Shown here in pieces: positions 2,226-41,047 of a stretch of DNA of 64,000 nucleotides (the first letter of the stretch is position 1; each line of letters opens with the position of its first letter). Source of the stretch: Candidatus Lutacidiplasma silvani (GTDB taxonomy: Archaea; Thermoplasmatota; Thermoplasmata; Lutacidiplasmatales; UBA184); assembly GCA_022750295.1 (NCBI GenBank), contig JAKIVZ010000002.1, forward strand, positions 1 to 64,000, read 5' to 3'. The position numbers and the translations under genes are program-made. Below the pieces are notes generated by a model that did not search any database, was not told where the DNA came from, and saw only the letters and a list, made by a program, of their open reading frames with translations.

Positions 2226-2229
2226 ACCA

Positions 2230-2241: not shown

Positions 2242-2470
2242 TCTTCGAGAGGCAGAGCAGGGAGAGCTCCCGGGTCGGAGTCTGGGGAGGGAGGGGGGCA
2301 CGAGGGGGATGCTGCTCCGGCGCGCCAGATAGAGCGCCCTACGAAGAGAATCGTGACCGGAGACGGGGACTCGGCGGTGACGACCGCTAAATCCCGGCGA
2401 GCCCGTCTCGTCCCCCCCCCACTCTCTCCCTCGGAGAGGAGGGCATCCGGCCGTCCTGGCGGAGGGACGT

Positions 2471-3074: not shown

Positions 3075-3086
3075 CGACCCGAATGT

Positions 3087-3108
3087 ATGCAGGCATGCAT
3101 TAAGAAAC
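3087..3108 (-). promoter_or_regulatory. vapBC promoter with short inverted repeat
   Basis: ATGCA, four-base spacer GGCA, TGCAT (3087-3100) forms a small inverted repeat directly next to a TATA-like element reading TTTCTTAATGC on the minus strand (3098-3108), about 29 bases from the ATG at 3074. The layout, operator between TATA box and start, matches that of the neighbouring AbiE-like operon. Operator function is inferred. Confidence 0.45.
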
Positions 3109-3214
3109 TTGGTCCCTCCTCGAACGGTGGCCAGTGGACGTCGGTGGCTCCCCCCCGGCGGAGGGCCGGCGGAGGTGCGATTGGCCTTGGGGGACTCCGT
3201 TGAGTGTCGCGTCG

Positions 3215-3754
3215 TCAGACGGGCGCCGCGTGCCGCGACTGCCAAACCGCGAGCGCCGCGACGATCGCGGTCAGCACGAACAGGGCTAGCATGAGGTCGT
3301 AGAGCCAAGGAATGTAGGAGAGCACGCCCGGATAGTCGGACGTCCCGAACAGGTACGTCGAGAACTGGTTCGCCGTCATGAACCCGACCTCCTGGTACGA
3401 TTCGACGATCCCGACCATCGCCAGGATCGCGAGGATCGGCCACGCGAGGGCGCCAAGCGGGGTGTAGCGACGAAGAAGCGACGGCATCCGGGGTCGCATC
3501 GACGGCATCGAGTACCCCAGCACGACAAGCGCCGCGACGAGGTCCACCAGCGCCAGGACGAGGACGCCGTACCAGTGGGCGTAGTACCCCGAGGAGAGCG
3601 CCCCGAAGTCGGTCTGGAGGTTCTTGTCCGTCGCCAGCATTACGACCGCGAGAACGAAGTCGACGAGGAGCAAGAGCGCGAGCCCCACGGCGATGCGATC
3701 GACCTCCGGGGCAGCGGCGGAGTGCACAGTGGGGCTCCCGGTGGGGGCAGACAT
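3215..3754 (-). CDS. Four-helix membrane protein of unknown function
   Basis: A 179-residue protein with four predicted membrane segments: about 21-42 (AVGLALLLLVDFVLAVVML), 58-82, 99-117 and 150-170. A short hydrophilic N-terminus rich in Ser, Pro and Ala precedes the first helix. No family motif is recognised. A TATA-like element (CTATCA on the minus strand near 3784) lies about 30 bases before the ATG, so it is probably transcribed alone; the gene upstream on the same strand is the kelch protein, separated by 166 bases that contain a strong hairpin. Confidence 0.7.
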   Translation of the reverse strand: MSAPTGSPTVHSAAAPEVDRIAVGLALLLLVDFVLAVVMLATDKNLQTDFGALSSGYYAHWYGVLVLALVDLVAALVVLGYSMPSMRPRMPSLLRRYTPLGALAWPILAILAMVGIVESYQEVGFMTANQFSTYLFGTSDYPGVLSYIPWLYDLMLALFVLTAIVAALAVWQSRHAAPV

Positions 3755-3830
3755 ACCCGGGTCGGACCGTCGACCCCCTGATAGACGCGACGGTTCGCTC
3801 CCATCCGCTGGGGGCGAGGGTTTCGTCGAG

Positions 3831-3853
3831 CCCCTCGGGAGTGACCCGAGGGG
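3831..3853 (-). terminator. Strong hairpin downstream of the kelch/PKD gene
   Basis: CCCCTCGGG (3831-3839), five-base loop, CCCGAGGGG (3845-3853) is a perfect nine-pair stem about 70 bases past the stop codon of the kelch/PKD gene and upstream of the next gene's promoter. There is no T-run after it, so termination is only a possibility; it could instead protect the mRNA 3' end. Confidence 0.3.
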
Positions 3854-3920
3854 TTGGGGAGCTCAGACCCTCGGGGACGCGCCGGCGGCAGGACGCCGTT
3901 CGGCGCGGCGCCCCGAATCC

Positions 3921-5753: not shown

Positions 5754-5774
5754 CCGTTCCGTCACTTTGGGAGC

Positions 5775-5783
5775 CTACTTAGA
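5775..5783 (-). promoter_or_regulatory. TATA-like box of the kelch/PKD gene
   Basis: TCTAAGTAG on the minus strand, centred 26 bases from the ATG at 5753 but only about 14 from the upstream GTG at 5765. The spacing therefore decides the start in favour of 5753. Confidence 0.45.
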
Positions 5784-5825
5784 GCGTCCGGTATCGGGCC
5801 CACGCGCGCCGGCGATCGCGCCCTG

Positions 5826-7460
5826 TCAACCGACCCCGACGATCCGCCCGTCGGGGAGGACGTCCATCTGCTCGGCCCGAGGTCGCTTCGGAAGTCCCGG
5901 CATGGTTTCGATTTCCCCGAGGAACACCACGGTGAAGCCCGCCCCTGACGACCGGTCGACCCGGCGGACCGACACTCGGAACCCGGTTGGCCGACCGAGC
6001 TTCTTGGGGTCATCGGAGAGCGAGAGGGCCGTCTTCGCGACGCAGATCGGAACCGTCCCTTCGCCGGCCCGAACGAGGTCGTCGAGCTGGCGACGGGCCT
6101 CGTCGGACCAGTCCGCTCCGGCTCCGCCGTAGAGGGTCCGCACGAGGGTATCGAGCGCCTCCGGGACCCGACAATCGCTCGGATAGAGGGGAGCGCTTCG
6201 CCCGCCGGACCTGGCGGCCTCGACCGCGCGGTCCGCCACGTCCGACGCCCCGCTCGCCCCGTCGGAGAACGCGGTCGATTGGGCAAATCCCGCCTTCTCC
6301 CCGGCCGCGAGCGCCGCGACGAGCGCGACCTCCGCGTCCGAGTCGTCGGGGAACCGGTTGAGAACGACGACCGGGGAGACTCCGAGCGCCCGGAGGTTGG
6401 CGAGGTGCGCCCGGAGGTTCTCGAGACCACGGCCGACCGCGGCCGGGTCGGGAGTCGAAAGCAGCGCCTCCTCGACCCCCCCCTGGCGGCGAAGACCGCG
6501 GACGGTCGTCACCAGCATCCCAGCGTCGACGGCGAGGCCGGCCTGCCGGCAGACGATGTCAACGAACTTCTCCGCCCCAAGGTCGGTCGCGAATCCCGCC
6601 TCGACGACGCAGTACTCGGCGGAGGCGAGCCCGAACTCGATCGCGAGCCGGCTGGCGGTCCCATGGGCGATGTTCCCGAACGGCCCGCCGTGGACGATCG
6701 CGGGGGTGCCGTCCGCACACTGAACCAGGTTCGGCTCGAGGGCGTCGCGGAGGAGGGCGGCCATCGCTCCCTCCGCGTGCAGGTCCCGCGCCCGAACCGG
6801 GACGCCCGAGCCGTTGACCCCTACGATGATCCGCCCGAGCCGGTCCTTGAGGTCCGGGTAATCCCGCGCGAGGCCGAGGACCGCCGTGACCTCCGAAGCG
6901 GCGGTGATCACGAACCGTCCGTCCCGCTCGACGGTCCTCCGGACGCCCCCGCTCTTCGCCACGACTTGGCGGAGCGCCCGGTCCTCCATGTCGACCGTCC
7001 ACGGCCAGCGGATCCGGGCCGGATCGAGGCCGAGCTCGTTCCCGAAGTACAAGTGATTGTTGACCAGCGCCGAGAGGAGATTGTGCGCGGCGGCCGCGGC
7101 GTGGAGGTCGCCCGTGAACCCGAGGTTGATCTGGTCCGCGGGTTCGACCGTCGCCTTCCCGCCGCCAGTCGCCCCACCCTTCACCCCGAAGACCGGTCCG
7201 AGGGACGGCTGCCGGAGGACGGCCACCGCCGTGTGACCGGCCCGCCGGAGAGCCATCGCGGTCGCGATCGTGGTGACCGTCTTCCCCTCGCCGTGGGACG
7301 TCGGGGTCATCCCCGTGATCAGGACGAGCTTCCCCTTGCGACCGGAGTCGACCCGGTCCCGAATCATCGGGACCGAAAGCTTCCCGATTCCGCGTCCGAC
7401 CGTTCGGACATCCCCAGGGCCGACCCGAAGGTCGGCGCACACCTCCTCGAGCGATCGCAC
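5826..7460 (-). CDS. fhs: Formate-tetrahydrofolate ligase
   Basis: A 544-residue protein with the hallmarks of formyltetrahydrofolate synthetase: the phosphate-binding loop ITGMTPTSHGEGKT at about 48-61, the segment LRQPSLGPVFGVKGGATGGG at about 84-103, and FTGDLHAAAAAHNLLSA near 124-140. It makes 10-formyl-tetrahydrofolate from formate, tetrahydrofolate and ATP in the cytoplasm, feeding purine synthesis and one-carbon metabolism. Length agrees with the family (about 550). The start is a GTG. The gene stands alone; no other folate gene is adjacent, so the wider pathway cannot be judged here. The enzyme is widespread in bacteria and patchy in archaea. Confidence 0.93.
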   Translation of the reverse strand: MRSLEEVCADLRVGPGDVRTVGRGIGKLSVPMIRDRVDSGRKGKLVLITGMTPTSHGEGKTVTTIATAMALRRAGHTAVAVLRQPSLGPVFGVKGGATGGGKATVEPADQINLGFTGDLHAAAAAHNLLSALVNNHLYFGNELGLDPARIRWPWTVDMEDRALRQVVAKSGGVRRTVERDGRFVITAASEVTAVLGLARDYPDLKDRLGRIIVGVNGSGVPVRARDLHAEGAMAALLRDALEPNLVQCADGTPAIVHGGPFGNIAHGTASRLAIEFGLASAEYCVVEAGFATDLGAEKFVDIVCRQAGLAVDAGMLVTTVRGLRRQGGVEEALLSTPDPAAVGRGLENLRAHLANLRALGVSPVVVLNRFPDDSDAEVALVAALAAGEKAGFAQSTAFSDGASGASDVADRAVEAARSGGRSAPLYPSDCRVPEALDTLVRTLYGGAGADWSDEARRQLDDLVRAGEGTVPICVAKTALSLSDDPKKLGRPTGFRVSVRRVDRSSGAGFTVVFLGEIETMPGLPKRPRAEQMDVLPDGRIVGVG

Positions 7461-7701
7461 GTCCGTTCGCCTCGGATTCCCGAGATGCGACGTCCCCTTT
7501 GAGACCGCCCGTTCGCCGGGACCCCTCGTCGCGGTCGCGGCGTGGCCCGGACCGGCCGCCGGCCTCCCGATGGGTGGATTGGCGAGGAGCCCCCGAACTC
7601 ATGGCGTCTCGCCGCCCCGGGGCGGGCCGCGGACGGTCCCGAGCCCTAGCTCCCTCGGGACGCCGCTGTGGGGGAATCGGCGTCCGGAGAATCGCGCCAG
7701 A

Positions 7702-8241
7702 CTAGGGCGGCGTCGAGGGGCCGCTCGGAGGACTCGGAACGACCGCCGGCGCCTCCTGCGGTGGCTTGCGGATGGCGATCCCGGCGACGCAGACGATGAC
7801 ACCGACGCCCAGGAGCCCGACGCCCGCCAACCCACCCGCGACCGGCTCGGTGTAATGGACGGTGATGTTCGCGGTCACGTTCGGAACGAGGAGGAAATAT
7901 CGGCCGGCCGAGCTCGACCAGCTCATCGACCCGGAGGCCCCATGGCCCTGGGCCACGACCGGGTCGAACGAATAGTTGGGGCACCCCGAATCGGTCCCGC
8001 AGCTGTAGAGAGTGACGTTGGCCGATACGGGGGCCGACCAGTCGGCGGAGTACGGCACCGACCCGATCAGCACGCCGCTCGGTAGGCCGAAGTCGTAGCC
8101 GTCTCCATACGGGACCAAAATGCTCGACGACGCCGGGGTGACCGGGACGACCCAGAGCACCGCGCCGAGCACGACCAAAACGGCGCCGAGAACCGCGATC
8201 CAGGCCCGCACGACGGTTTCCCGGGGGGCCGACGGTCTCAT
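7702..8241 (-). CDS. Small exported or membrane-anchored protein with two membrane helices
   Basis: About 179 residues starting MRPSAPRET at 8241. An N-terminal hydrophobic helix (about WIAVLGAVLVVLGAVLWVV) is followed by an extracellular domain with strand-like segments, sequons (NVT, NYS, NIT) and two nearby cysteines (CGTDSGC) that may form a disulfide, then a second helix (GLAGVGLLGVGVIVCVAGIAI) and a Pro/Ser tail. Similar short N-out-C proteins are common among archaeal envelope proteins; no named family is recognised. A TATA-like CTTATCTA lies only about 8 bases before this ATG, so initiation at the GTG at 8211 is also possible. It is divergent from the winged-helix gene that follows. 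Confidence 0.65.
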   Translation of the reverse strand: MRPSAPRETVVRAWIAVLGAVLVVLGAVLWVVPVTPASSSILVPYGDGYDFGLPSGVLIGSVPYSADWSAPVSANVTLYSCGTDSGCPNYSFDPVVAQGHGASGSMSWSSSAGRYFLLVPNVTANITVHYTEPVAGGLAGVGLLGVGVIVCVAGIAIRKPPQEAPAVVPSPPSGPSTPP

Positions 8242-8360
8242 GGTAGATAAGCGCCGGAGTCGGCCCCCGACGGCCGGCCCGCAACGGTCCGGCCGGACGG
8301 GACGCACAATCTGGCCGACAATGTTGAAGTAACCGGGCCCGGTGCCGGAGACGGTGTAAC

Positions 8361-8756
8361 ATGCCCTTCCCCAAGGCCCCGACCGCTCCCCCCGAACCCG
8401 AACCCCCGGGCATCGGCGACCAGCCCCATCTGATTGACCGGATCGCCGGCGAGCTCGACCTCCTCGCCCGGAACGTCGACATCGTCGAGCGGCTCGCCGG
8501 GAACCCGCCAATGGGGATCATCCGCCTGAGCGAGGCGATGCACCTGCCGATCCACAAGGTTCGCTACTCCCTGCACCTGCTCGAGCGCGAAGGGGTCATC
8601 CAACCGTCCGCGGACGGGGCCGTCGTCACCGACCGCGCCAAGGAGTACTTCGCGGCCCTTGATTCGTCCCTGAATCGGATGACCGCGACCATTCAGCACC
8701 TCCAGGAGCGGGCGACGGAGTACAAAGGACGCTCCGCGGCCCGGAAAGGCTATTAG
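8361..8756 (+). CDS. Winged helix-turn-helix transcriptional regulator
   Basis: A 131-residue basic-tailed protein. After a Pro-rich N-terminus, residues about 25-95 read as a winged helix: helices DRIAGELDLLARNVDIVERLA and IIRLSEAMHLPIHKVRYSLHLLEREGVI, then the wing IQPSADGAVVTDRAKEY. A C-terminal helix (about 98-125) could mediate dimerisation. It likely binds DNA and may control the divergent envelope gene, from which it is separated by 119 bases; this is inference from position. The start fits a TATA-like TTGAAGTAA about 33 bases upstream. Confidence 0.75.
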   Translation: MPFPKAPTAPPEPEPPGIGDQPHLIDRIAGELDLLARNVDIVERLAGNPPMGIIRLSEAMHLPIHKVRYSLHLLEREGVIQPSADGAVVTDRAKEYFAALDSSLNRMTATIQHLQERATEYKGRSAARKGY

Positions 8757-8782
8757 AGCCGCCCCACGTCGGCGCCGCCGGT

Positions 8783-8887
8783 GCCGCCGTAGCTCAGCGG
8801 TAGAGCGATCGGCTGTTAACCGAAAGGTCAGCGGTTCGAACGGGCGTCCGGCTCGTCCGGGGCGCCCCGGAACTCCGCTCGGCGGCG
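8783..8887 (+). tRNA. tRNA-Asn (GUU) interrupted in the T-loop
   Basis: The acceptor strands GCCGCCG (8783-8789) and CGGCGGC (8880-8886) pair perfectly, with discriminator G at 8887. The D-arm, the anticodon GTT at 8815-8817 and a five-base variable loop are normal. The T-stem AGCGG (8830-8834) pairs with CCGCT (8875-8879), but the loop between them is 40 bases instead of 7. Removing 33 bases (8841-8873) restores a normal TTCGAAT loop, placing the intron at position 59/60. The insert contains GGGCG (8842-8846) pairing with CGCCC (8863-8867), as expected for a structure cut by the archaeal splicing endonuclease. Exact splice sites are inferred, and the A-A at the base of the anticodon stem is unpaired. 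Confidence 0.85.
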
Positions 8888-8917
8888 CCTCCCTCGCCTT
8901 TTCTGAGCCGCTTCCGC

Positions 8918-8991
8918 GGGCCCGTAGCTTAGCGGACTAGAGCGTCCGGCTCATAACCGGTCGATCGACGGTTCGAATCCGTCCGGGCCCA
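8918..8991 (+). tRNA. tRNA with CAU anticodon, probably tRNA-Ile2
   Basis: A complete cloverleaf: acceptor GGGCCCG (8918-8924) with CGGGCCC (8984-8990), discriminator A at 8991, anticodon CAT at 8952-8954, T-arm GACGG-TTCGAAT-CCGTC (8967-8983). No CCA is encoded and there is no intron. Acceptor and D-arm resemble haloarchaeal tRNA-Ile2, whose C34 is changed to agmatidine to read AUA; elongator tRNA-Met cannot be excluded. It lies 30 bases after tRNA-Asn on the same strand. Confidence 0.9.
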
Positions 8992-9107
8992 GTCCCGCCG
9001 CGACAACGAACCGATTGGACGTTCCGCGGGTCAGTCCTTCCACCGACTGGGCTCGGGGCGAGTCGGTCGGGTGAGGGTCACGTGGCGGGAGAGGTGAGCC
9101 CGGGAGT

Positions 9108-9662
9108 TCAGCGACGGATTGCCGCGCTTCCGGCTTGGGCTCCGGCATCGCGGCTCCCGGGGGTGGGAGTCGGCGGGCCAGAGGAACCGGCCGAGTTCTT
9201 TCGGAGGTCGCGGGCGACCGACTCCCCGAGGGGGGTGAGAGTGTACACCATGAGACGGCGGGGTCGACCGGTCACGTGGCGCCGGTCACTCACGAGCACA
9301 CCAGCGGCCGTCAAGCGACCAACCACCCGGGCGACGGTTCCCTGCCGGAGCCCGAGCGCGCGGCCAATCCCTTCCTGAGTGAACTCCGGGTCCGCAACCT
9401 CGTGGGGCGCGAGGCGTCCCTGAGCGTAGAGCTGAAGTATGACGCGACCGGCCATGGTCGCCCCTTCGGACACGTTCTTAGAAGGTGGCGGCCCCGGCCC
9501 TGGGCCGGTCGGATGGGGCGTTGGAACTGGAATCGTGACCGGCGTCGGTTCTGCCGCCGGAGGTGTCGTGCGTTCCATACGGGTCCGCCGGTAAAGCGCG
9601 TGACCTGCCCAACCGACGACTCCGCCCGTCGCGGCCGCCACCACGAGCTCGAGGACCGTCAC
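9108..9662 (-). CDS. Membrane-anchored winged-helix protein
   Basis: A 184-residue protein with an N-terminal membrane helix (residues about 3-22, LELVVAAATGGVVGWAGHAL), a basic and Pro-rich linker (about 24-66), then a MarR-like winged helix at about 70-150: helices VILQLYAQGRL, TQEGIGRALGLRQGTVARVVGRL, and a wing around VSDRRHVTGRPRRLMVYTLTP. A DNA-binding domain tethered to the inner face of the membrane suggests a one-component sensor-regulator. It lies 37 bases downstream of the large repeat surface protein on the same strand and probably shares its mRNA. Initiation at the internal ATG (MAGRVI) would give a soluble regulator, which should be kept in mind. Confidence 0.7.
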   Translation of the reverse strand: MTVLELVVAAATGGVVGWAGHALYRRTRMERTTPPAAEPTPVTIPVPTPHPTGPGPGPPPSKNVSEGATMAGRVILQLYAQGRLAPHEVADPEFTQEGIGRALGLRQGTVARVVGRLTAAGVLVSDRRHVTGRPRRLMVYTLTPLGESVARDLRKNSAGSSGPPTPTPGSRDAGAQAGSAAIRR

Positions 9663-9699
9663 GCGCGCGGGGTCCTGCGTCGCGCCGTTCGGATCGGAC

Positions 9700-12600
9700 T
9701 CACGGTTTCGGGGTCGTGCCCAGCTCGGATCCGGGTTCGGTCAGTTCGCGAACCCATGCGGTGCCCTCGCGACGTGCGGCGCGGCTCCTCCACGTCGCGA
9801 CGACGACGCCGAACGCGATAGCTGCGAGGAGCAGCGCGCCAACGAGCTCCGCGAGGACTCCGGAAATTGCGCCCCCACCTCCTGGCCCGCCCGGGGGAGC
9901 CGGGGCGCTGAACCGAACCGTCGGCGAACTCCCCAGTAACTTGCCGGCGATCGTGAATGTCGGGGAGGAGAGATTCGCCCCGTACCCGCCGGCGCGCACG
10001 CTCAAGGCGTACGTGCCATTCGGCAAGTCGAAGATCAGCGCGTTGCCGTTCGTGGAGTAGGTGGTGTTGAACCCAGTGCTCGCGTCCGTCACGAGAATGC
10101 TCCAGGTCGTGCCGTTCGGGAGGCCGAACTCGACGACGATGACCGGATACGACTGCGGGGTGAACACGACCGCCACAGAACGGTTGCTCCCCGTGACGAC
10201 GACGAATCCGGAGTCGTTGGTCGTGAAGCCGGCGACGGGGAGGACCAGGTATCCGAACGTCCCGTTCGTCTCGAGAAGGGTCACGTTCGGGCCGAGCGAA
10301 CTGTCGAGCTGGCTCCCAATCGACACGGCCCACCCGGTCCCTAGGGGAAGACCCGTTTCGACGAAGGAGACGGCGTAGAGGTCGGTTGAGACGAATTCGA
10401 CATCCACCGCCGGAGGCGCCGAGCCGTTGACTGACACTGTCCCGCTTGAATCGGCGATTCGGTATCCGACCACCGGCGGCACTCCGTACGGGAACGACCC
10501 GTTCGGCTCGGAAAACACGATCGACGGTGCCGTCGCCGTCAATGTCGAACCCAAGCTCACGGTCCACGGAGTCCCGGTTCCAAGGCCAGACTCGAGGAAG
10601 GTGACTGCATAGAACCCGGCGGCGAGAGTAAAATTGACCTCGACGTACACTGGGGCGCCGGCCACCGTCACGGTTCCCGATGCCGGGCTCGGATCGTACC
10701 CGAACGCCCCACCCGTAGTGAAGGCGTACGTGCCGTTCAGCTCGGGGGCGACAATGGTCGAACCCCTGGTCTCGATCCCGGCTCCACCGACTCCGATGCT
10801 CCAGTCGGTCCCGTCAGGAAGACCGTTCGCCCGGAAGGTGAGATTGTGGAATCCACCCACGAGGGAGAAGCGAACCTCAACCGACTCGGCAGCCCCGTTG
10901 ATCTGCACAGAGCCGTTGGCCGGAGTGGCGACATACTCCGACCGGCCGTATTCCAAAATCGGGGAAACTTGGAACTGGTAGGAGCCGTTCGGCTCGGACC
11001 AGGTCACGGACGGCGTCGTCGAGTCTTGCGACGCGGGGCCGGAGGCTCCGGCGAGCGTCACGCTCCAGGACGTCCCGTTGACGAGCCCGCTCTCTTGGAA
11101 CGTCAGGGCGTACGCCACCGTGACGGTCCATTGAACCGAGACCGTCACTGCGCTCCCATTCACGGTCACGGTCTGGTTCGTCGTGCTTGCCGTGTATCCG
11201 CTGATCTGGACGATGACGAACGGATAGGTCCCATTCGATTCATCGAGGACGATCGAGGGGGTGTCGGACCAGTTGGAGACTTCGCCGATGTCCACGCCCC
11301 ACAGCGTCCCGTTGGGGAGCCCCATCTCGGTGAAGGTTACCGGGTAGAATCCTACCCAAACCCAGCTGATGTCGATCGTCGCGGAGACGTTCCGGATGAC
11401 GATGGTACCGCTGCCGTTGACGGCGTACCAGCCGACCGGAGCGTCGGTCGCATAGAAGTAGGTCCCGGGATAGACATCGGCCTCGAAGTTCTCGGGCGCA
11501 AAGTCGCTTCCGCCGAACCCGTCTGTCGAGTTGTTCATATCGTAGCCCCAGCGGGTCCCGTTTGGAAGTCCGGATTCGTCCAGTGAAATCGTGTAGACGC
11601 CCCCGCCACCGCCGGTCGAGGAGCGAGTCCAGTACAGGGTCAGGTTGACCGACTTGCCCACGACCGTCACATTTCCCGAGCCCGGCGAGCTTGTCCAGCC
11701 CGATAGGCCGGTCGTCGCCGAGAATGGATAGGTCCCGTTGATTTCCTCGAACTGAAGGACTGCGCCGGTCGAGCCTTCGCTGAACCCCCCGAGCGACGCC
11801 CACCAAGGGTCCCCCGAAGGGAAGCCGGTTTCGTTGAACCGGACGACGTAGACGCTCCCGGTGGCGAACGTGACGTTGACGCGGCCGGGTCCGGCGCCGA
11901 GGTTGGTGACGTACCCTTGGAGGGGACTCGGCGCCTCGCCGGCGGCGGGGAAGATGGTGAATGAGTAGTTGTAGCTGGCCTGGTGGGACCCGGCGTCGAC
12001 CCCAAAAACGAACGATGTGCCGGTAATCGCCTCGGTCACGCCGTCAGCCGTGAATCCCTCGGGAAAGAGCGTCACGTTCCACGACGTTCCCCGGGGTAGT
12101 CCCGTCTCCGAGAAGGTCACATTGGCGTCCGGCCGTAGCTCACCGAAGGTGAAGCAGCCGAAGGTCACATTCGCGCTATTCGTCAGGCAGACGTCCCCGT
12201 TCGTCGGGTCGTAGGCGATTCCCGAGGGATCGTAGGGGATTTCGTCGACCGCCCGCTGCTCCGAGGTGTTGATCACTACGGTGCTGAAACCGGCCGTGAC
12301 CCAAATCAGCTGGTTAGCGCTGTCGTAGGCGACCCCCTGTAAGTCCGGGGCGAACCCCGTCGTCGCGATCGGAACGGTCGCATTGAGGGTGGCGGAGGCG
12401 GCGGCGATGACGCTGACGTTGTCGGACCCCTCGTTGGCGACGTAGACGGTATCCGTCGCGTTGTCGACGGCGAGGCCGTCGGGTGCTGAACCGACCGAGA
12501 CGTTCCCGAGGGGGTTCCCCGAGGACCCGTTCAGGACGCTGACTTGGTTGGAAGTCCGGTCCGATACGAACACCCGGTTCGAAGCTCCGTCGTACGCCAC

Positions 12601-13329
12601 TCCAATCGGACCATCACCCACGGATACATTCGCGAGGACGGCGTGGGAGGTCGCGTCAATCACGCTCGTCTGGTTCGTCCCGTTCGAGGCAACGAACACC
12701 CGCGCCTGACCAGGATTGACCGCGATACCGAGCGGCTCACTCGGCACTGGGATGTTCGCGACCACGGCCTGAGTTGTGCCGTTGATCACGGTGACGTTGC
12801 TCGAGCCGAAGTTGGTGACCCACACCTGGTCGGTGGAGCTGTCCACGGCGACCCCGAATGGGTCGATGCCCACCGCGATCACCGCGGTGGCGGTCGTCGA
12901 TCCTGCTGGGATCTCGTCCACGCTCGAAGGCGGGGCGGCGACGTAGAATGCCTGGTCCCATGGCGCGTAGGCAAGCCAACCGACACCTGAGGCGTAGGCG
13001 TACCCCGCTCCTCGGTTTGCGACGAGACTCGCCACTTTGGTCTGGTGCTCGAGGAGTTGCGCGACGTCTGGTTGTGCCGCCCAGCCGATGGCAGGCTCCG
13101 GCTCGCCGCGAGGTGCCGGAAAGTCCGTTCCCAACTCGGTAGCCCGCGCCACCTGGTCACGGGCCGTACCCGCGAGCGAAGGGATGGGGGCGGGATTCCC
13201 CCCTCCCCTGGGCGAGCCGACGGTCAAGGTTGGGAGGACCGCAATGAGTAGCACTACCAGCAGGGTCGCGGCCGTCAAGCCTCGCCAAACTGGAAAGCTC
13301 GGATCACCTAGGCGCCGATATCGAGACAT
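9700..13329 (-). CDS. Giant surface protein: YVTN propeller plus nine ESGLP-type repeats
   Basis: A 1209-residue exported protein. A signal peptide (about LTAATLLVVLLIAVLPTLTVG) precedes a region of about 110 residues, then a beta-propeller of six or so YVTN/NHL-like blades (pattern V-x-V-x-x-x-P-x-G-[IV]-A-[VY]-[DN]). Nine consecutive immunoglobulin-like units of about 80 residues follow, each opening with a variant of F-x-E-[ST]-G-L-P-x-G-T-x-W and containing a second hallmark, E-x-N-G-[ST]-Y. The protein ends with a Gly/Pro linker, a membrane helix (about VLAELVGALLLAAIAFGVVVAT) and a charged tail. N-x-S/T sequons are dense. Probable role: glycosylated cell-surface or adhesion layer. The ATG at 13329 lies 28 bases from a good TATA box. 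Confidence 0.88.
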   Translation of the reverse strand: MSRYRRLGDPSFPVWRGLTAATLLVVLLIAVLPTLTVGSPRGGGNPAPIPSLAGTARDQVARATELGTDFPAPRGEPEPAIGWAAQPDVAQLLEHQTKVASLVANRGAGYAYASGVGWLAYAPWDQAFYVAAPPSSVDEIPAGSTTATAVIAVGIDPFGVAVDSSTDQVWVTNFGSSNVTVINGTTQAVVANIPVPSEPLGIAVNPGQARVFVASNGTNQTSVIDATSHAVLANVSVGDGPIGVAYDGASNRVFVSDRTSNQVSVLNGSSGNPLGNVSVGSAPDGLAVDNATDTVYVANEGSDNVSVIAAASATLNATVPIATTGFAPDLQGVAYDSANQLIWVTAGFSTVVINTSEQRAVDEIPYDPSGIAYDPTNGDVCLTNSANVTFGCFTFGELRPDANVTFSETGLPRGTSWNVTLFPEGFTADGVTEAITGTSFVFGVDAGSHQASYNYSFTIFPAAGEAPSPLQGYVTNLGAGPGRVNVTFATGSVYVVRFNETGFPSGDPWWASLGGFSEGSTGAVLQFEEINGTYPFSATTGLSGWTSSPGSGNVTVVGKSVNLTLYWTRSSTGGGGGVYTISLDESGLPNGTRWGYDMNNSTDGFGGSDFAPENFEADVYPGTYFYATDAPVGWYAVNGSGTIVIRNVSATIDISWVWVGFYPVTFTEMGLPNGTLWGVDIGEVSNWSDTPSIVLDESNGTYPFVIVQISGYTASTTNQTVTVNGSAVTVSVQWTVTVAYALTFQESGLVNGTSWSVTLAGASGPASQDSTTPSVTWSEPNGSYQFQVSPILEYGRSEYVATPANGSVQINGAAESVEVRFSLVGGFHNLTFRANGLPDGTDWSIGVGGAGIETRGSTIVAPELNGTYAFTTGGAFGYDPSPASGTVTVAGAPVYVEVNFTLAAGFYAVTFLESGLGTGTPWTVSLGSTLTATAPSIVFSEPNGSFPYGVPPVVGYRIADSSGTVSVNGSAPPAVDVEFVSTDLYAVSFVETGLPLGTGWAVSIGSQLDSSLGPNVTLLETNGTFGYLVLPVAGFTTNDSGFVVVTGSNRSVAVVFTPQSYPVIVVEFGLPNGTTWSILVTDASTGFNTTYSTNGNALIFDLPNGTYALSVRAGGYGANLSSPTFTIAGKLLGSSPTVRFSAPAPPGGPGGGGAISGVLAELVGALLLAAIAFGVVVATWRSRAARREGTAWVRELTEPGSELGTTPKP

Positions 13330-13354
13330 GTCAAGCGTTCGGGGCCTTCCGCGC

Positions 13355-13362
13355 TATATGAA
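13355..13362 (-). promoter_or_regulatory. TATA box of the giant surface protein gene
   Basis: TTCATATA on the minus strand, centred about 29 bases before the ATG at 13329, typical for leaderless transcription. The 228 bases up to 13557 separate two divergent surface-protein genes and contain further AT-rich patches (AATATAC near 13372, AAAATATT near 13384), which could serve either direction. Confidence 0.55.
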
Positions 13363-13557
13363 CCCTCGGCGAATATACGGCCAAAATATTCCACGTGCCC
13401 TCGATGAGCGACTTACCTCCGTCCAGCGCGGAACCATGCGGGGAGGTCCCGATGTCCAGTCAGCTATTCCCGTTAGGGGTTGCGACCAGTCCCAGGGCCG
13501 GACCGGCCCCCCCCGGGTCGGGGGAGGGCTAATTTCCGTGGTTCGCTTCCGCGGAGT

Positions 13558-15735
13558 GTGTCGGTCTGGGGCTCCCGGGGCGTGCCATGGTCGCTCGTCG
13601 TGTTCGGCGGCTTAGTGCTAATCCTGCTCCTCCCGACCTCCGCAATCCCTCACGGCGCAGGCGGAGCGCTTCCACTACCCACCGCGGGATCTAGCGCAGG
13701 TCCGTCCGCTCGCGAATCAGGCGCCGCGGAGACCGAAGCGCGGGCCCATGGGGTTGGGCTATCTCCGCCGAACACTCGACACCGTGTCTCGGGGGGCGAA
13801 CCTCTGAGCCAAGCGCCCCAATTCCCCCCGCACCCCTCCATCGTGAACCCCCTCCAGTATTACACACGGGAACCGGCCCCGACGGGAATCGCCGACTTCG
13901 GCGTCACGGGGCCCTCCCCGGGGGCAAGCGCCTACGAATACTCCACGCCGAGCTTCCAAGGACAAGCGGTCGTCCGGTCGCTCTCGGTCTCGATCAGCGG
14001 CACGTCGTCGAAGGTGACCGCGTTCGAGTTGAACGAAGTGGTGGTGTTCGAACGGAATGGTACGAACTATTCGTATTGGATCCAGAACGGGCTCCATTTG
14101 GACGCGGCGTCCGACGAATTCACGATCGGGGGGGCGTACGTTTGGAACTTCTCGTCCCCCGGAGCGACGCTGGGCACCGGCGAGCTGACGGGGAACTCCG
14201 GCTCGGTCCTTTCGGGCGACACCTACTACGACATTCCCGGTTGCGGGCCGACGTACGCCGGGCAGTGCACCACGTTCAGCCTGCCCGCCACCCTCACCGG
14301 CCGCGTGGTGACCGCCACGAGCGCCGGGGTCCCCTACGTCGCGTATCAGTATGACCTCGGCTCGGGTTGGGTCACGTTCGATAACGTGTCGTTCTCTCAC
14401 CTGGCCAACGCCACCGACGCGGGATTCCGGGTGGACGGGTTCGAGACGACCCCGCGCGCGTCGGACCTTTACTACGACGCCGAGTGGGTCTGGGTCGGCG
14501 CGGGCGGCGGCTCAGCGAGCACGGACGAGGGGTCCGACATCAACCTCACCCTCTCGTGGTGGAACGGGCACAACTACCAGGCGGTCCCGACTGCGTGGAA
14601 TTTCGGCAGCAACACGGGGGAGACGTCGTCCAACGTGACGGACGTCGCGGCCGACCCTCTCGGGGGCTACCTTACAAGCGGTGCCGGAACGCTCGGCCTC
14701 CTGTACAATCTCACGAGCGTGGGATTCCTGAACCTGTCGGTTCCCACGCGGAGTCCGGCCACGGTCCTGGTGGACGGGCTCGCGACATCGTTCCGTGCCG
14801 GCTGGGCGAACCTCACCCTCCCGGTCGGCGCGCACTCGCTCTACTTGCAGAACTTCACGAACGCCTCGGACTCGTTCGACATCGTCGCGGGCGCGACCAC
14901 CGAGGTCAATCTCTCGGGGGCGGGCGAATTGACCGTGAACGAAAGCGGCCTCCCGACGGGGACCCCGTGGGGGATCGACGTCAACGGTTCCGCTCTCACG
15001 ACCAATGGAACGGCGCTGGCGGTCCATCTCGCGAACGGAACCTACCCGGTGACCTACGCGGCGGTCCCGGGGTACTCCCATGTCGGCTCGAGCCCGGCGA
15101 GCGTTACGCTCCCCGGAACGTCCCAGATCCCTCTCCTCTTCGTGCCGTTCACGTTCGCCGTCCCCGTCACGGAGTCCGGCCTGCCGTCCGGCACTTCCTG
15201 GTGGGTCATCGCGAGCGGGAGCACGGCCACGGGGACCGGGGCGTCGCTGCAGGTGATGGCCCCGAACGGATCGACGCCGTACGAGGTCGGGTCCCTCTAC
15301 GAATTCGTCGCGAGCCCCCGGGCCGGGACGATCGTGGTGGTGGCGGGGGCGGCCTCTCCCGTGACGGTGGCGTTCTCGTACCGGCCGACGTTCATCGCGG
15401 GAACGGTCGTTCCCGCCGACGCCAATGTTTCGATCGAAGGCGTGGCCCAGGCAGTGGCCGACGGGAGTTTCAACGATTCGGTCCTCCCGGGTTCTTACGC
15501 CCTCGTCGCGAGCGCCCGAGGATACGCGACCCAGCAGGTCACGGTCGGGGCCACCGCCGGAAACGTCACGTGGGCGAATCTGACCCTCGTGGCCAATCAA
15601 TCCACCGCCCCCCACCCGGCCCCTTCGGCCTCCGGAGGGGGCGGGATCCCCGCGCTCACCGCCGTCCTGGTCGTGGCGGTGGTTGCGGCCGTCGCAATCG
15701 GGGCCGTGATCGTGTTGGCCCGCCGACGGCGCTAG
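13558..15735 (+). CDS. Thermopsin-family (peptidase A5) surface protein with repeat domains
   Basis: About 725 residues. After a signal peptide (SLVVFGGLVLILLLPTSA) and a variable region comes a thermopsin-like domain, recognised from L-Q-Y-Y-T-R-E-P-A-P-x-G-I-A-D-F-G and the later segments around WIQNGLHLD and VWNFSS. Thermopsins are acid proteases secreted by acidophilic archaea; whether this one is catalytic cannot be judged. Two ESGLP repeats follow (ESGLPTGTPW and ESGLPSGTSW), then a carboxypeptidase-regulatory-like segment (FIAGTVVPADANVSIEG), a linker, a membrane helix and a basic end. The frame is open back to 13480, but those residues look non-coding; the GTG at 13558 directly before the signal peptide is preferred. 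Confidence 0.83.
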   Translation: MSVWGSRGVPWSLVVFGGLVLILLLPTSAIPHGAGGALPLPTAGSSAGPSARESGAAETEARAHGVGLSPPNTRHRVSGGEPLSQAPQFPPHPSIVNPLQYYTREPAPTGIADFGVTGPSPGASAYEYSTPSFQGQAVVRSLSVSISGTSSKVTAFELNEVVVFERNGTNYSYWIQNGLHLDAASDEFTIGGAYVWNFSSPGATLGTGELTGNSGSVLSGDTYYDIPGCGPTYAGQCTTFSLPATLTGRVVTATSAGVPYVAYQYDLGSGWVTFDNVSFSHLANATDAGFRVDGFETTPRASDLYYDAEWVWVGAGGGSASTDEGSDINLTLSWWNGHNYQAVPTAWNFGSNTGETSSNVTDVAADPLGGYLTSGAGTLGLLYNLTSVGFLNLSVPTRSPATVLVDGLATSFRAGWANLTLPVGAHSLYLQNFTNASDSFDIVAGATTEVNLSGAGELTVNESGLPTGTPWGIDVNGSALTTNGTALAVHLANGTYPVTYAAVPGYSHVGSSPASVTLPGTSQIPLLFVPFTFAVPVTESGLPSGTSWWVIASGSTATGTGASLQVMAPNGSTPYEVGSLYEFVASPRAGTIVVVAGAASPVTVAFSYRPTFIAGTVVPADANVSIEGVAQAVADGSFNDSVLPGSYALVASARGYATQQVTVGATAGNVTWANLTLVANQSTAPHPAPSASGGGGIPALTAVLVVAVVAAVAIGAVIVLARRRR

Positions 15736-15767
15736 GGTCCGCCCGAGAGCCGCCCCGTCGTCCGCGC

Positions 15768-16610
15768 CTACGCGGCGGGGCCCGGGAGACTCTCGACGAA
15801 CTCCGACAGCGCGGCGTCGAACGCGTCCGGTCGGGAGAGGTTGAGGAGGTGGTCCGCCCCGGGGACCAGTTGCACGGTGGCGCCCGGGATCCCTCGGGCG
15901 AGGAAGTTGGAGGTGTGCGGGATCACGGGGTTGTCCCGGTCCCCGACGAGGATTCGCGTGGGGACCCGAACCTCGCGAAGTCGCCCGGCGGCCGGCTCTC
16001 CCTCGGGGGTATCGAACCGAGCCGAGCGGTCCGTGAACACCTCCTCCGGATTCTCGCGGACCATCCGCTCGAACAGCTCGCGGGCGCGACCCGTGATCGC
16101 CGAGGCCCACAACTGCCGGACCTGCTCGGTGGCGTCCGCCAGGTTTCCCGCCGCCCAGGCGTCGGCGGCCGCCTTGGAGAGCCGCTCGTCCCGCTCGAAC
16201 GTCGCCTTCCCGGCCGGGACGTGGTCGTAGTCCATCCCCGAATACCCGGGGGCGACGAGCAGCAGGGCTCCCACCTTCTCGGGATGCGCGAGGGCGAGGT
16301 CGAGCGAGATCCTTCCGCCCATGCTCGGACCGACGATCAGGGGTCGGTTGACCTGGAGGTGGTCGAGCAAGGCCAGGAGGTCCCGCACGGAGGAATACTC
16401 CGACGTCGCCGGGGTCGAGCCGCCGTACCCGCGGAGATCGTAGCGAACGACATGGTGGTCGCGGGCGAGCCGGGGAAACTCGCGATCCCACATCCGGCGG
16501 TCCGCGATCCCCTCGTGGAGGAGGACGATCGTCCGGCCGCTGCCGGCCACCTCGTAGGAAATCGCTCCACCGAGAACCGAGAGAGTCTTCGAGCCAACCG
16601 CGTCGGTCAT
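15768..16610 (-). CDS. Alpha/beta-fold hydrolase
   Basis: A 280-residue alpha/beta hydrolase. The catalytic triad is visible: nucleophile S96 in GPSMGG, an acid D224 or D226 in LVGDRDNP, and H254 in GADHLLNL. The HEGIADRRMW segment near 32-41 supplies the oxyanion-hole region in the position of the usual HG motif. The fold and lid (about 125-190) resemble small esterases and 3-oxoadipate enol-lactonase-like enzymes; the substrate is not predictable. Soluble, no signal peptide. It stands alone between a surface-protein gene and an aminopeptidase gene. Confidence 0.88.
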   Translation of the reverse strand: MTDAVGSKTLSVLGGAISYEVAGSGRTIVLLHEGIADRRMWDREFPRLARDHHVVRYDLRGYGGSTPATSEYSSVRDLLALLDHLQVNRPLIVGPSMGGRISLDLALAHPEKVGALLLVAPGYSGMDYDHVPAGKATFERDERLSKAAADAWAAGNLADATEQVRQLWASAITGRARELFERMVRENPEEVFTDRSARFDTPEGEPAAGRLREVRVPTRILVGDRDNPVIPHTSNFLARGIPGATVQLVPGADHLLNLSRPDAFDAALSEFVESLPGPAA

Positions 16611-36229: not shown

Positions 36230-36482
36230 GGGGCACCGAGACCCAGGGCGGTGGGGGCGGGCGCTCGGCCGGTCGAATCAAGACTCCGCGAGTCGAGGGA
36301 CGCGGGGCCGAGGGCGAACTCTCGCGTCGCGGGACTGTCGGTCGTAACGAGACACCAGGTCGAACGACCCAAGTTACCCTACAAAATGCTGATGGAACAA
36401 CGGTCGAACCCGAGTGGGTCTGTCGCACGCCGAGAACCGACGGGCCCGCGAGCCCGTTCCAAGGTCCGGATGCGGCGCTGGG

Positions 36483-36508
36483 ACCCGCCAAGGCTTTGAA
36501 TCAAAACC
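36483..36508 (+). repeat. Left end of the TnpB element
   Basis: Direct repeat ACCCGCCAAGG (36483-36493), one base, then inverted repeat TTTGAATCAAAACC (36495-36508). The stop codon of tnpB (TGA on the minus strand, 36501-36503) lies inside the inverted repeat. The core TTTGAATCAAA is itself almost palindromic. Confidence 0.7.
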
Positions 36509-37850
36509 CCCCACCGTCTCGGGGGGCGACTTCGATCCTCCTTTCCCGTCCGCTCCGCCCGTGCGCCCCGGCGTGACCCGGGGAGTAGAGGAGCTTCATC
36601 GCATCCTTGGGAAGGGCGTCGGGGCTTAGCCAAAGGCCCCCAAGTCCTGAGTTCGACGGCCCTTTCGGGGCCTCCCGCAGGACGATTTGGCAGATGTTCA
36701 GCCCGGCGTTGAGCTGACGGTCGCACCGCCAGCCGCAACTCGCGCAGACGAACACCCGACCCACCCTGCTTCGGCGTTCCTTGATCTCGCCAAATCTCGG
36801 GCAGGTTTTCGACGTGTTGCGTGGGTTCACTTTGAGAACGGGGACCCCTTGCTCCTCCGCCTTGTACTCGAGTTGACGATGGAGCTCCCGCTGGGGCCAG
36901 GAGGAGAGGCGCCGACGCATTCGACGTCCGTGTCCTCCGCCCCGGGGAAGATGCAAGTCCTCGAGGGAGAGGGCCGCCCCGCGGGAGTTCGCTTGGGCCA
37001 CGAGCATCTTGGTGAGGAGGTGGAGTCGCTGGACGATCCGCCGATGCTCCCTCCGCCCTTCTCTTCCCAGAAGCTTTCGGCCGACCCGACGGTCGTGAGC
37101 CTTCTTTCGACCGAGCCTCCGTCGGCGGGCGAAGTGTCGGTGTTGGATTGTGGCGACGTCCGGGTACGGGACGACGAGCGGGGTCGTGGCGTCCGGTTCG
37201 AGGAGGACCCCATCGAGCGAGCGTTCGTTGGTGTCCAGGGCAAGGATGGCCTGAGGGGTGTAGGGCTCCGGGGTGTCCAGCTCGAGGACGAGGACAGCAC
37301 GGTTCGCGTTGAGGCGGAGCTGCTTGATCCGACGGTCGGCGAGAACGGAGCGATGCCAATCGGACTGCCGGAGGTCGAGTCCGGCCCACTCGCTGTTCCG
37401 TAGGGAGAGGCGGAGGTGTCCGGTGTCGGGGTTCAGGTGGAAGGTCGAATCGTCGGCGACGAGAAACGGGCTTCGGACGTAGGGGACGCGGGATCGGGCG
37501 CCCTTCCGAAGGCGGCGGCGGTGCCCTGCGTCGAGGGAGAGCGCGGTGTCCATGGGGGTGCGGGAGTGGACGCCGTTGACACGGAGTTCACGAGCGAGGC
37601 CTTGGGAGTACTTTGTGAGCGAGCCTTGGGCGGTGAGCCCCTGTTCGATTGCCTCACGGATTCCGCGATTGACCATCAATCGAAAGTCGGAGAGGAGGGC
37701 GAGGGCAGGATGGGGAAGGGGTCCGGCGAGATTGCAGACGAGGCTCCGACGCGCCAGCACGTGGCGAAGAAGGCGGGACGTTGGCCATCGGGCTTTACCG
37801 ACTGCCGAACGGTGGAACGTGCGGGAACTCTGAGGCGGGGCCGCCGTCAT
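36501..37850 (-). CDS. tnpB: TnpB-type RNA-guided nuclease/transposon protein
   Basis: About 449 residues from the ATG at 37850. RuvC-like catalytic residues are present: D206 (LALDTNE), E297 (LSLEDL) and D377 (RCDRQLNAGLNI). The C-terminal zinc ribbon is C350-P-R-F then C369-A-S-C372, so the partner of C350 is Phe353 where Cys is usual. TnpB proteins are ancestors of Cas12 and cut DNA under guidance of an RNA from the element end, but lack transposase activity. The open frame continues to 38042, through the right inverted repeat and the rRNA promoter, which cannot be the native start. Whether activity survives the lost cysteine is unknown. Confidence 0.88.
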   Translation of the reverse strand: MTAAPPQSSRTFHRSAVGKARWPTSRLLRHVLARRSLVCNLAGPLPHPALALLSDFRLMVNRGIREAIEQGLTAQGSLTKYSQGLARELRVNGVHSRTPMDTALSLDAGHRRRLRKGARSRVPYVRSPFLVADDSTFHLNPDTGHLRLSLRNSEWAGLDLRQSDWHRSVLADRRIKQLRLNANRAVLVLELDTPEPYTPQAILALDTNERSLDGVLLEPDATTPLVVPYPDVATIQHRHFARRRRLGRKKAHDRRVGRKLLGREGRREHRRIVQRLHLLTKMLVAQANSRGAALSLEDLHLPRGGGHGRRMRRRLSSWPQRELHRQLEYKAEEQGVPVLKVNPRNTSKTCPRFGEIKERRSRVGRVFVCASCGWRCDRQLNAGLNICQIVLREAPKGPSNSGLGGLWLSPDALPKDAMKLLYSPGHAGAHGRSGRERRIEVAPRDGGGF

Positions 37851-37873
37851 GTCGCCCGGCCGACACGGGTCTC

Positions 37874-37901
37874 GGTTTTGATTCAAAACAACCCGCCAAG
37901 G
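37874..37901 (+). repeat. Right end of the TnpB element
   Basis: Complement of the left inverted repeat (37874-37887), three bases, then the direct repeat ACCCGCCAAGG (37891-37901). The inverted repeat sits 24 bases upstream of the chosen tnpB ATG. Confidence 0.7.
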
Positions 37902-37905
37902 AGTC

Positions 37906-37915
37906 GTTAAATAAT
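37906..37915 (+). promoter_or_regulatory. Probable promoter (TATA box) of the 23S rRNA gene
   Basis: GTTAAATAAT is the best TATA-like sequence upstream of the 23S gene. It would place the transcription start near 37940, giving a leader of about 100 bases before the processing stem at 38040. The sequence is nearly symmetric and could also serve tnpB on the other strand. Confidence 0.5.
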
Positions 37916-38039: not shown

Positions 38040-38075
38040 CACACGCGTTCTGGACGCTTGTCAAGTGCAATTAGT

Positions 38076-38082
<7 letters not shown>
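38040..38082 (+). repeat. 5' half of the 23S rRNA processing stem
   Basis: CACACGCGTTCTG (38040-38052) pairs perfectly with 41035-41047; TGTC plus AAGTGCAA (38059-38070) pairs with 41017-41028; GTAGCTG (38076-38082) pairs with 41001-41007. Between the first two helices, six bases on each side can form a short helix flanked by three-base bulges, resembling the bulge-helix-bulge cut by the archaeal splicing endonuclease. Confidence 0.7.
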
Positions 38083-41000
<2,918 letters not shown>

Positions 41001-41007
<7 letters not shown>

Positions 41008-41047
41008 GTCAACTGGTTGCACTTGGCAGTTAAACAGAACGCGTGTG
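41001..41047 (+). repeat. 3' half of the 23S rRNA processing stem
   Basis: Contains CAGCTAC (41001-41007), TTGCACTTGGCA (41017-41028) and CAGAACGCGTGTG (41035-41047), which pair with the segments described for 38040-38082. The outermost 13 pairs are perfect, so the whole 23S sequence would be looped out and excised. Confidence 0.7.

What the first reader, a model, noticed from the sequence alone, without database searches (positions are those of the whole stretch)
36483..37901. TnpB unit bounded by 14-base inverted repeats and 11-base direct repeats
Perfect TTTGAATCAAAACC inverted ends and ACCCGCCAAGG direct repeats enclose a single tnpB. IS200/IS605 elements, the usual home of tnpB, transpose as single strands, lack terminal inverted repeats and do not duplicate targets. 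This layout could mean a DDE-type element captured tnpB, or an unusual class of TnpB carrier mobilised in trans. The tnpB stop codon lies inside the left repeat.
Basis: seen in the sequence. Interest (0 to 1): 0.75.

Follow-up and report, generated by a model that had tools for sequence, protein, structure and literature searches.

The report
TnpB riding promoter-spaced IS5-like transposons
In Thermoplasmata archaea, a gene for an RNA-guided DNA-cutting enzyme (TnpB) sits inside a transposon of a kind not expected to carry it, and such elements lie at a fixed distance from promoter-like sites of host genes, here that of the large ribosomal RNA.

Summary
In 18 tnpB elements with both ends recognised, 15 have 9-mers matching at 7/9 or better in one register, against 4 of 306 cross-pairs. 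Related genomes have uninterrupted sites. Similar ends follow some IS5-like, SWIM-finger DDE transposase genes (6 of 37 places examined), bound a deletion derivative of one, and bound elements without tnpB. This is therefore a non-autonomous DDE-type element, probably moved in trans, and not IS200/IS605 or IS607. Its RNA side looks intact: 15 of 23 predicted omegaRNA pairs show two-sided changes, and one helix uses the inverted repeat. A regularity not in the finding: 24 of 27 tnpB left ends lie about 17 bp from a TATA-like box (control 0.95%), here the 23S rRNA promoter; nine divergent neighbours tested are recognisable host genes. Eukaryotic Fanzors in DDE transposons are known; my searches found no prokaryotic case. 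No intact transposase element with both ends was recovered, movement was not shown, and the TnpB step is inferred.

The parts
36492..37890 (-). whole tnpB element (1,399 bp, including the one non-matching base X/Y outside each 16-bp repeat)
   Evidence: TIR plus TSD register shared with relatives; coordinates checked
36493..36508 (-). right-end terminal inverted repeat (3' side of tnpB), also predicted 3' end of the omegaRNA scaffold
   Evidence: helix 5 of the consensus structure pairs into it
37874..37889 (-). left-end terminal inverted repeat (5' side of tnpB), 15/16 to the right-end repeat
36483..36491 (.). 9-bp target-site duplication, copy 1 (ACCCGCCAA)
37891..37899 (.). 9-bp target-site duplication, copy 2 (ACCCGCCAA)
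36501..37850 (-). tnpB (449 aa from ATG; frame is open further upstream), Cas12f1-like_TNB domain, RuvC D/E/D residues present, one zinc-finger cysteine replaced by Phe
36493..36615 (-). predicted omegaRNA scaffold (structured 3' part; true 5' end unknown), overlaps the end of tnpB
   Evidence: A2, 17 sequences
36472..36491 (-). predicted guide: begins with the TSD and runs on into the flank
   Evidence: inference from TnpB biology plus element boundary
37907..37915 (+). TATA-like box TTAAATAAT upstream of the 23S rRNA gene, 17 nt from the element's left-end repeat
38071..41012 (+). archaeal 23S rRNA gene, divergent from tnpB
   Evidence: Rfam RF02540

Best explanation
A TnpB nuclease gene and its omegaRNA form the cargo of a non-autonomous transposon of IS5 type. 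A DDE transposase encoded elsewhere in the cell (best candidate: the L148-like SWIM-finger DDE_Tnp_1 group, some of whose genes end in the same GCTTTG-type repeat) recognises the 16-17-bp inverted repeats, inserts the element with a 9-bp staggered cut, and uses sites about 17 bp from a TATA-like box, with the tnpB left end facing the box. The right-end repeat does double duty: it is a transposase-type end and it forms the 3' end of the omegaRNA, so the guide read out beyond it starts with the target duplication and matches the uninterrupted site. Shown: TIRs, TSDs, uninterrupted sites in relatives, similar ends at DDE genes and on a deletion derivative, TATA spacing, omegaRNA covariation. Inferred: the identity of the active transposase, movement in trans, TnpB cutting of empty sites to favour copying or retention of the element, and transcription of tnpB from or near the host promoter.
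For: TIR and TSD: 15 of 18 tnpB elements have 9-mers matching at 7/9 or better at one fixed register, cross-pairs 4 of 306. Some ends had been picked with the TSD in view; in the 16 whose ends fit GCTTTG/CAAAGC with at most one mismatch it is 13 of 16 against 3 of 240. TIR letters differ between elements yet stay paired within each, 11/16 to 16/16. Partner: the SWIM+DDE_Tnp_1 gene of L148 (G025) ends at ...GAATAAAATCCCAAAGT, in a genome with several tnpB elements ending GAATAAAATCCCAAAGC or a one-base variant; clear CCCAAAG-type ends also follow the DDE genes of L142, L169, L173, L136 and L196. SWIM is over its Pfam cut-off in L148 and in 8 of 10 further L148-like proteins, below it in the other 2. 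L196 keeps a DDE C-terminus between GCTTTGGGAT-type repeats (12/17) with a 9/9 TSD. IS5 type: five such proteins score 111-137 bits with NF033579 (cut-off 140); L161, a plain IS5 transposase by the same model (151 bits; no tblastn match to L148 at 1e-6), has TIR TGCTSTGTTGAATGAA and a 9/9 TSD. tnpB-less elements with the same kind of ends and 8/9 or 9/9 duplications: L101, L103, L106, L115, and L105, read by eye. Uninterrupted sites. TATA spacing: 24 of 27 left ends against 0.95% of 9,180 windows; nearer control 2.1% of 846, with 16 of 18 left ends; right ends 0 of 18. omegaRNA: 95.9% of 391 cells paired, 15 of 23 pairs with both-side changes, 0 of 500 shuffles as high on any measure (that control does not remove relatedness).
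Against: Only 6 of 37 L148-like DDE places (my count of distinct places) have a clear CCCAAAG-type end nearby; two more in the own genome have looser ones (L163, L172). No intact such element with both ends and a TSD was recovered; the link rests on right ends and on L196. Of 26 genomes with this tnpB clade (one search matches of about 42% identity or more, my selection) 13 have an L148-like match, against 24 of the other 77 (Fisher p = 0.07). The own genome has 4 L148-like matches, none shown to have the window's TTTGAATC-type end; a GCTTTGAATCGG sequence lies about 770 bp from one (G000:C26). L010, L011 and L119 have TIRs without matching 9-mers, L005 a TIR without a TSD. Seven of 25 two-flank tnpB loci are not in the 18. 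Uninterrupted sites match the 9-mers only at 5/9 to 6/9. The window TnpB lacks one zinc-finger cysteine, L023 lacks that cysteine and the third RuvC Asp, so single copies may be dead. No conserved TAM was seen by eye before the TSDs (listing).
Confidence: 0.8

Rival explanations
1. An IS200/IS605 or IS1341-type element whose subterminal palindromes happen to look like inverted repeats; the direct repeat is coincidence.
For: tnpB is usually found there (established knowledge); the end motif TTTGAATCAAA is nearly palindromic on its own (one search shows both strands matching with 2 mismatches).
Against: The repeats are at the boundaries and differ in sequence between elements while staying paired; 15 of 18 have duplications in one register versus 4 of 306 cross-pairs; some DDE genes end in such a repeat. 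Seven distant TnpB loci gave no combination of a TIR of 13/16 or better with a TSD of 8/9 or better, though some of these loci lack part of a flank.
Confidence: 0.04
2. A TnpB carrier moved by a DDE transposase of another family (for example IS1, IS256 or an unrecognised one) rather than by the L148-like SWIM-finger group.
For: Half of the tnpB-clade genomes show no L148-like match (13 of 26 do); only 6 of 37 L148-like places have a clear matching end; 9-bp duplications are recalled also for IS1 and IS256, which were not searched: only PF01609 and an uninformative PF13737 search were run.
Against: L148-like genes sit directly against ends of the same sequence in several genomes, and L196 is a deletion derivative with such ends and a TSD.
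Confidence: 0.14
3. The elements insert widely, and mainly copies lying upstream of promoters survive; the TATA spacing is selection for tnpB expression or for harmlessness, not targeting.
For: Insertions into coding sequence would be lost; in 24 of 27 cases the tnpB left end faces the box, and no right end does (0 of 18); many other ends lack the box (33 of 42 without either gene, 4 of 7 with DDE inside; these include chance matches and far ends).
Against: Spacing is held within a few bases (window starts -25 to -21 make up the peak), and some ends of DDE-bearing and other elements show it too (3 of 7 and 9 of 42). Tandem insertions put the AT-rich repeat of one element at nearly the same distance from the next (L104, L105, L111, L114), which suggests that the AT-rich site itself is read.
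Confidence: 0.2
4. tnpB is a domesticated host gene (a regulator of the neighbouring promoter) and the ends are fossils.
For: Single copy in the own genome; zinc cysteine lost in this copy; the predicted guide begins close to the host promoter.
Against: Different neighbours at the loci read, several similar copies in G025, and a site where G043 keeps only a remnant: mobile-element behaviour, not conserved synteny.
Confidence: 0.05

Closest known systems
Fanzor1 in IS4-type elements of Ectocarpus siliculosus and its virus (PMC3627910, passages seen)
   Same: TnpB-type nuclease inside DDE elements with 18-bp TIRs and (8-bp) TSDs; related copies carry either the nuclease or the transposase
   Different: Eukaryotic and viral, Fanzor rather than prokaryotic TnpB, two families carry transposase and nuclease together; no promoter spacing mentioned in the passages seen
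Fanzor2 captured by TIR/TSD transposons and the SfAV Fanzor1 element (PMC10711439, section 28 and passages seen)
   Same: reRNA end overlaps the TIR and TSD
   Different: Eukaryotes and viruses; there the TSD is described as incorporated into the scaffold, here the 9-bp TSD varies and more likely starts the guide (inference)
IS5 family, IS903-like group (TIR GGCTTTGTTGAATAAATC and 9-bp TSD recalled, not from a call)
   Same: GCTTTG-type ends, 9-bp TSD, NF033579-type transposase as candidate partner
   Different: Candidate transposases carry an N-terminal SWIM finger and fall below the family cut-off; this element carries tnpB and no recognised transposase
IS200/IS605, IS1341 and IS607 tnpB elements
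   Same: tnpB with an omegaRNA at the right end
   Different: Those have no terminal inverted repeats and make no TSD (for IS607: abstract of PMC6188088 in the listing; otherwise recalled); Y1 and serine recombinases were not searched for here

Membership tests
TnpB RNA-guided nucleases | RuvC/TNB domain and D-E-D residues | tested here: met
   PF07282 E 1.1e-20; NF040570 99.7 bits against a cut-off of 100; D174 and E265 invariant, D345 nearly invariant in 12 sequences (their role as the catalytic triad is recalled)
TnpB RNA-guided nucleases | four-cysteine zinc finger | tested here: not met
   Window copy has Phe in place of the second cysteine (CPRFG); 10 of 11 relatives aligned have the cysteine, L023 has Trp
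TnpB RNA-guided nucleases | omegaRNA at the element's right end | tested here: met
   Covarying structure ending in the TIR; expression not testable
IS200/IS605 (IS1341) | no terminal inverted repeats, no target duplication | tested here: not met
   TIR 15/16 and a 9-bp duplication here; 15 of 18 in the set compared
IS200/IS605 (IS1341) | Y1 transposase TnpA | not tested
   No TnpA search was run on the element or the genome
IS607 | no TIR, no TSD | tested here: not met
   TIR and TSD present
IS607 | serine recombinase | not tested
   No search was run
IS5-family element | terminal inverted repeats | tested here: met
IS5-family element | 9-bp TSD (as in the IS903 group, recalled) | tested here: met
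   also the IS5 element of L161
IS5-family element | own IS5-type transposase | tested here: not met
   PF01609 search of the own genome lists no match inside the element
IS5-family element | IS5-type transposase with the same ends elsewhere | tested here: inconclusive
   L148-like genes with matching right ends at 6 of 37 places, below the NF033579 cut-off (111-137 vs 140); no intact two-ended copy found

The most novel reading that the evidence does not exclude
A promoter-seeking transposon system in archaea: an IS5-like transposase with a SWIM finger reads TATA boxes (or TBP/TFB bound to them) and inserts TnpB units about 17 bp upstream of host-gene promoters in a fixed orientation; the guide then matches the uninterrupted promoter allele, so TnpB homes the element into, or holds it at, promoters that the host cannot easily lose.
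Probability: 0.35. Interest if true: 0.88.

Novelty: new variant of a known kind. Interest (0 to 1): 0.76.

Why it matters
TnpB is regarded in prokaryotes as a partner of Y1 or serine recombinases. A clade that has moved to a DDE-type element, as Fanzors did in eukaryotes, lets one ask what TnpB contributes when the transposase chemistry is different, and how one short sequence serves both as transposase end and as omegaRNA scaffold. The fixed TATA spacing would make integration at basal promoters, familiar from Ty elements in yeast (recalled), testable with an archaeal insertion sequence.

Tried and rejected
PF13737 (recalled as the IS903-type DDE model) found nothing in 103 genomes and also nothing in its 14 controls, so it says nothing. 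A search for TTTGAATCAAAACC in the own genome, up to 2 mismatches, gave 7 hits, 4 of them at the window's own ends; the others were looked at and revealed no autonomous element. Looking for the left end of intact L148-like DDE genes by TIR, by TSD from the right flank, and by both gave chance-level pairs apart from L196; one search also showed other repeat types (L149, L153, L160), not followed. A TAM upstream of the TSDs was looked for by eye in the listing and not seen. Co-occurrence of tnpB clade and L148-like DDE is weak (13 of 26 vs 24 of 77, p = 0.07).

Rows dropped before counts. I took 25 full-length or nearly full-length two-flank tnpB loci of this clade, de-duplicated between collections, (my own tally; the partial genes L219 and L236 are not among them). 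18 entered; L004, L005, L008, L199, L213, L223 and L228 did not. By eye L213 (8/9) and L228 (GGTTCTG ends, 9/9) also have duplications; L199 has TIR-like ends without one; L005 has a 15/16 TIR without a TSD. One search added 9 one-sided left ends, chosen because the end could be recognised; L021 was recognisable and left out by oversight. The TATA window was chosen; a correction for about 60 positions does not change the conclusion. Neighbour genes: one search read 17 loci; I sent nine that I recognised as likely genes, plus one arbitrary piece from L009, to Pfam.

Paper searches (8 of 10 used) showed, in their listings, no paper on a prokaryotic tnpB in a DDE element and none on TATA-spaced archaeal insertion sequences; most listed papers were seen only as title and start of abstract, passages were seen of PMC10711439, PMC9956272 and PMC3627910. 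Subscription papers and preprints are largely absent from that library. The PNAS 2023 census of TnpB (recalled) was not among the papers listed and was not read.

Full report
What is there. The window comes from a 2.1-Mb draft genome in 29 contigs with an archaeal 23S rRNA gene at 38071-41012. The 44 named loci encoding relatives of its TnpB are labelled Thermoplasmata archaeon (31), Euryarchaeota archaeon (5), Methanomassiliicoccaceae archaeon (4) and bacteria (4, distant) (my count). A single tnpB on the minus strand (36501-37850) lies just upstream of the 23S gene.

Refined boundaries. Comparing relatives in one register gives an element of 36492-37890, inverted repeats of 16 bp (15/16; 36493-36508 and 37874-37889) and a 9-bp duplication ACCCGCCAA (36483-36491 and 37891-37899). 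The tnpB stop codon lies inside the right-end repeat, which is on the left in window coordinates.

The pattern recurs in this TnpB clade. A search of 103 genomes of the same family found TnpB matches at E <= 1e-10 in 32; a scan of genome contigs gave 44 loci, many the same contigs judged by length. In 18 elements with both ends recognised, the 9-mers beside the ends match at 7/9 or better in 15; among 306 cross-pairs between different elements 4 do. Some ends were picked with the TSD in view; for the 16 elements whose ends fit GCTTTG/CAAAGC within one mismatch the count is 13 of 16 against 3 of 240. The end sequences differ (TTTGAATC type here, GGGATTTTATTC in many, GTTCTGTCC in L220) but stay paired within each element, 11/16 to 16/16. 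Seven of 25 two-flank loci are outside the 18; two of those show duplications by eye. Seven distant TnpB loci gave no strong TIR+TSD combination.

Uninterrupted sites. For the window locus, L032 has both flanks without the element, but they are only about 68-86% identical; L033 has the promoter side. For L002, genome G028 (L250) has the whole 241-bp region uninterrupted at 87% identity; for L013, G026 (L256) has it at 80%. The 9-mer itself has diverged in all four (5/9 to 6/9), so a clean single copy was not seen. Genome G043 (L255), with flanks 94-96% identical to those of L002, keeps about 130 nt with a recognisable piece of tnpB at that same site: a decayed copy of the insertion (the tnpB piece was recognised by eye).

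The DDE connection. A search with PF01609 in 24 chosen genomes found matches in 13. The gene in L148 (G025) has a SWIM finger and a DDE_Tnp_1 domain and ends at GAATAAAATCCCAAAGT; tnpB elements of the same genome end in GAATAAAATCCCAAAGC or a one-base variant. A search with this protein found matches in 37 of 103 genomes. SWIM is over the Pfam cut-off in 8 of 10 further such proteins. Of 37 distinct L148-like places, six have a clear CCCAAAG-type end nearby (L148, L142, L169, L173, L136, L196), and L163 and L172, in the own genome, have looser ones. L196 is a 1,106-bp element with GCTTTGGGAT-type ends (12/17) and a 9/9 duplication that keeps only the C-terminal part of the DDE gene: a deletion derivative, which ties ends and transposase together. 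Elements with neither gene but with such ends and duplications of 8/9 or 9/9 are 589, 3,287, 48 and 105 bp long (L101, L103, L106, L115); L105 holds another of 970 bp, read by eye. Five L148-like proteins score 111-137 bits with the NCBIfam IS5 model (cut-off 140). L161 passes it (151), though it has no tblastn match to L148, and its element has TIR TGCTSTGTTGAATGAA and a 9/9 duplication. From memory, IS903 of the IS5 family has ends GGCTTTGTTG and a 9-bp duplication.

Promoter spacing. In tnpB orientation, 24 of 27 left ends have at least 5 A/T in the six bases at -23 to -18; in control windows 60-400 nt upstream of the same loci, 0.95% of 9,180 do, and nearer the ends 2.1% of 846. On the right-end side 0 of 18 do. 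At the window locus this is TTAAATAAT (37907-37915), conserved before the 23S gene in L032 and L033. Nine divergent neighbours sent to Pfam all gave a family: an AAA protein (LonB-like among its matches), a phenylalanyl-tRNA synthetase core, CTP synthase, ribosomal protein S12, Cpn60/thermosome, enoyl-CoA hydratase, a kumamolisin-type protease, a B12-binding protein and TauE. In seven the first listed start lies beyond the box; in L002 and L016 the frame is open through it and a later start is likely. A tenth, arbitrary 57-aa piece gave nothing. Ends with DDE inside and ends with neither gene show the box in 3 of 7 and 9 of 42 cases (the 42 include chance matches and far ends). Where two elements abut with 11 bp between them (L104, L105, L111, L114), the AT-rich repeat of one lies at nearly the same distance from the other (4 of 6 A/T in the window, 5 of 6 one base away), which suggests that the sequence itself may be read. 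In four genomes (L097, L103, L135, L136) an end sits beside a similar TACACC-bearing sequence without a TATA-like box at that distance; in L097 and L103 the neighbouring gene looks like tfb (by eye).

The RNA side. The last 150 nt of 17 elements fold into a consensus with 23 pairs, 15 with changes on both sides; 95.9% of 391 cells are paired, and no measure was reached in 500 shuffles. The structure was derived from the same alignment and some sequences are close relatives, so both controls lean its way, but the margin is large (slid structures pair 38-57%). Helix 5 pairs a conserved GGGA with the inverted repeat and changes with it in three elements. The repeat is therefore probably both transposase site and scaffold end, as described for the SfAV Fanzor reRNA (PMC10711439, section 28 read).

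Mechanism. Best supported: a DDE transposase acting in trans cuts at the repeats and inserts with a 9-bp stagger close to a promoter; TnpB-omegaRNA reads a guide that begins with the duplication, matches the uninterrupted site, and could cut it so that repair copies the element in. The second half is inferred from general TnpB biology; no TAM was seen, and the window copy lacks one zinc cysteine.

Known and new. Fanzors in DDE transposons are known (PMC3627910 and PMC10711439; passages seen). The listings of eight paper searches showed no prokaryotic tnpB in a DDE element and no TATA-spaced archaeal insertion sequence. I call it a new variant of a known kind: TnpB cargo of a non-autonomous IS5-like transposon, with an unusual promoter-spaced insertion pattern.

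Noticed in passing
L097, L103, L135, L136 (G069, G072, G087, G077): In four genomes an element end with a GCTTTG-type repeat lies beside a similar sequence (TACACC...), possibly the same insertion site; in two of them the neighbouring gene looks like transcription factor B.
   Followed up: partly
L242 (G051:C1) 2074-16567: A GCTTTG-type left end and the right end following an L148-like DDE gene lie 14.5 kb apart beside near-identical GGGTGGTCC sequences: a possible large composite element with cargo.
   Followed up: partly
L104 1621-1665, L105 2149-2193, L111 2551-2595, L114 2480-2524: Two elements abut head to tail with exactly 11 nt between the repeats, as if one had inserted at the target duplication of the other.
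   Followed up: partly
L106 2556-2603 (G027:C4): A 48-bp mini-element consisting of little more than the two inverted repeats, with an 8/9 duplication.
   Followed up: no
L103 5786-5815 and some other non-tnpB right ends: A second copy of the end motif (CCTTGTGATT-type) about 29 nt inside the repeat, not noticed in tnpB elements; perhaps a second transposase site.
   Followed up: no
L255 (G043:C4:37851-37986): About 130 nt with a piece of tnpB remain at the site occupied by a full-length tnpB element in G101: a record of loss of the insertion.
   Followed up: yes
window:31347-36229: Two long open frames on the minus strand beyond the element's right end (1,170 and 432 aa, the latter glycosyltransferase-like by eye); not examined further.
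   Followed up: no
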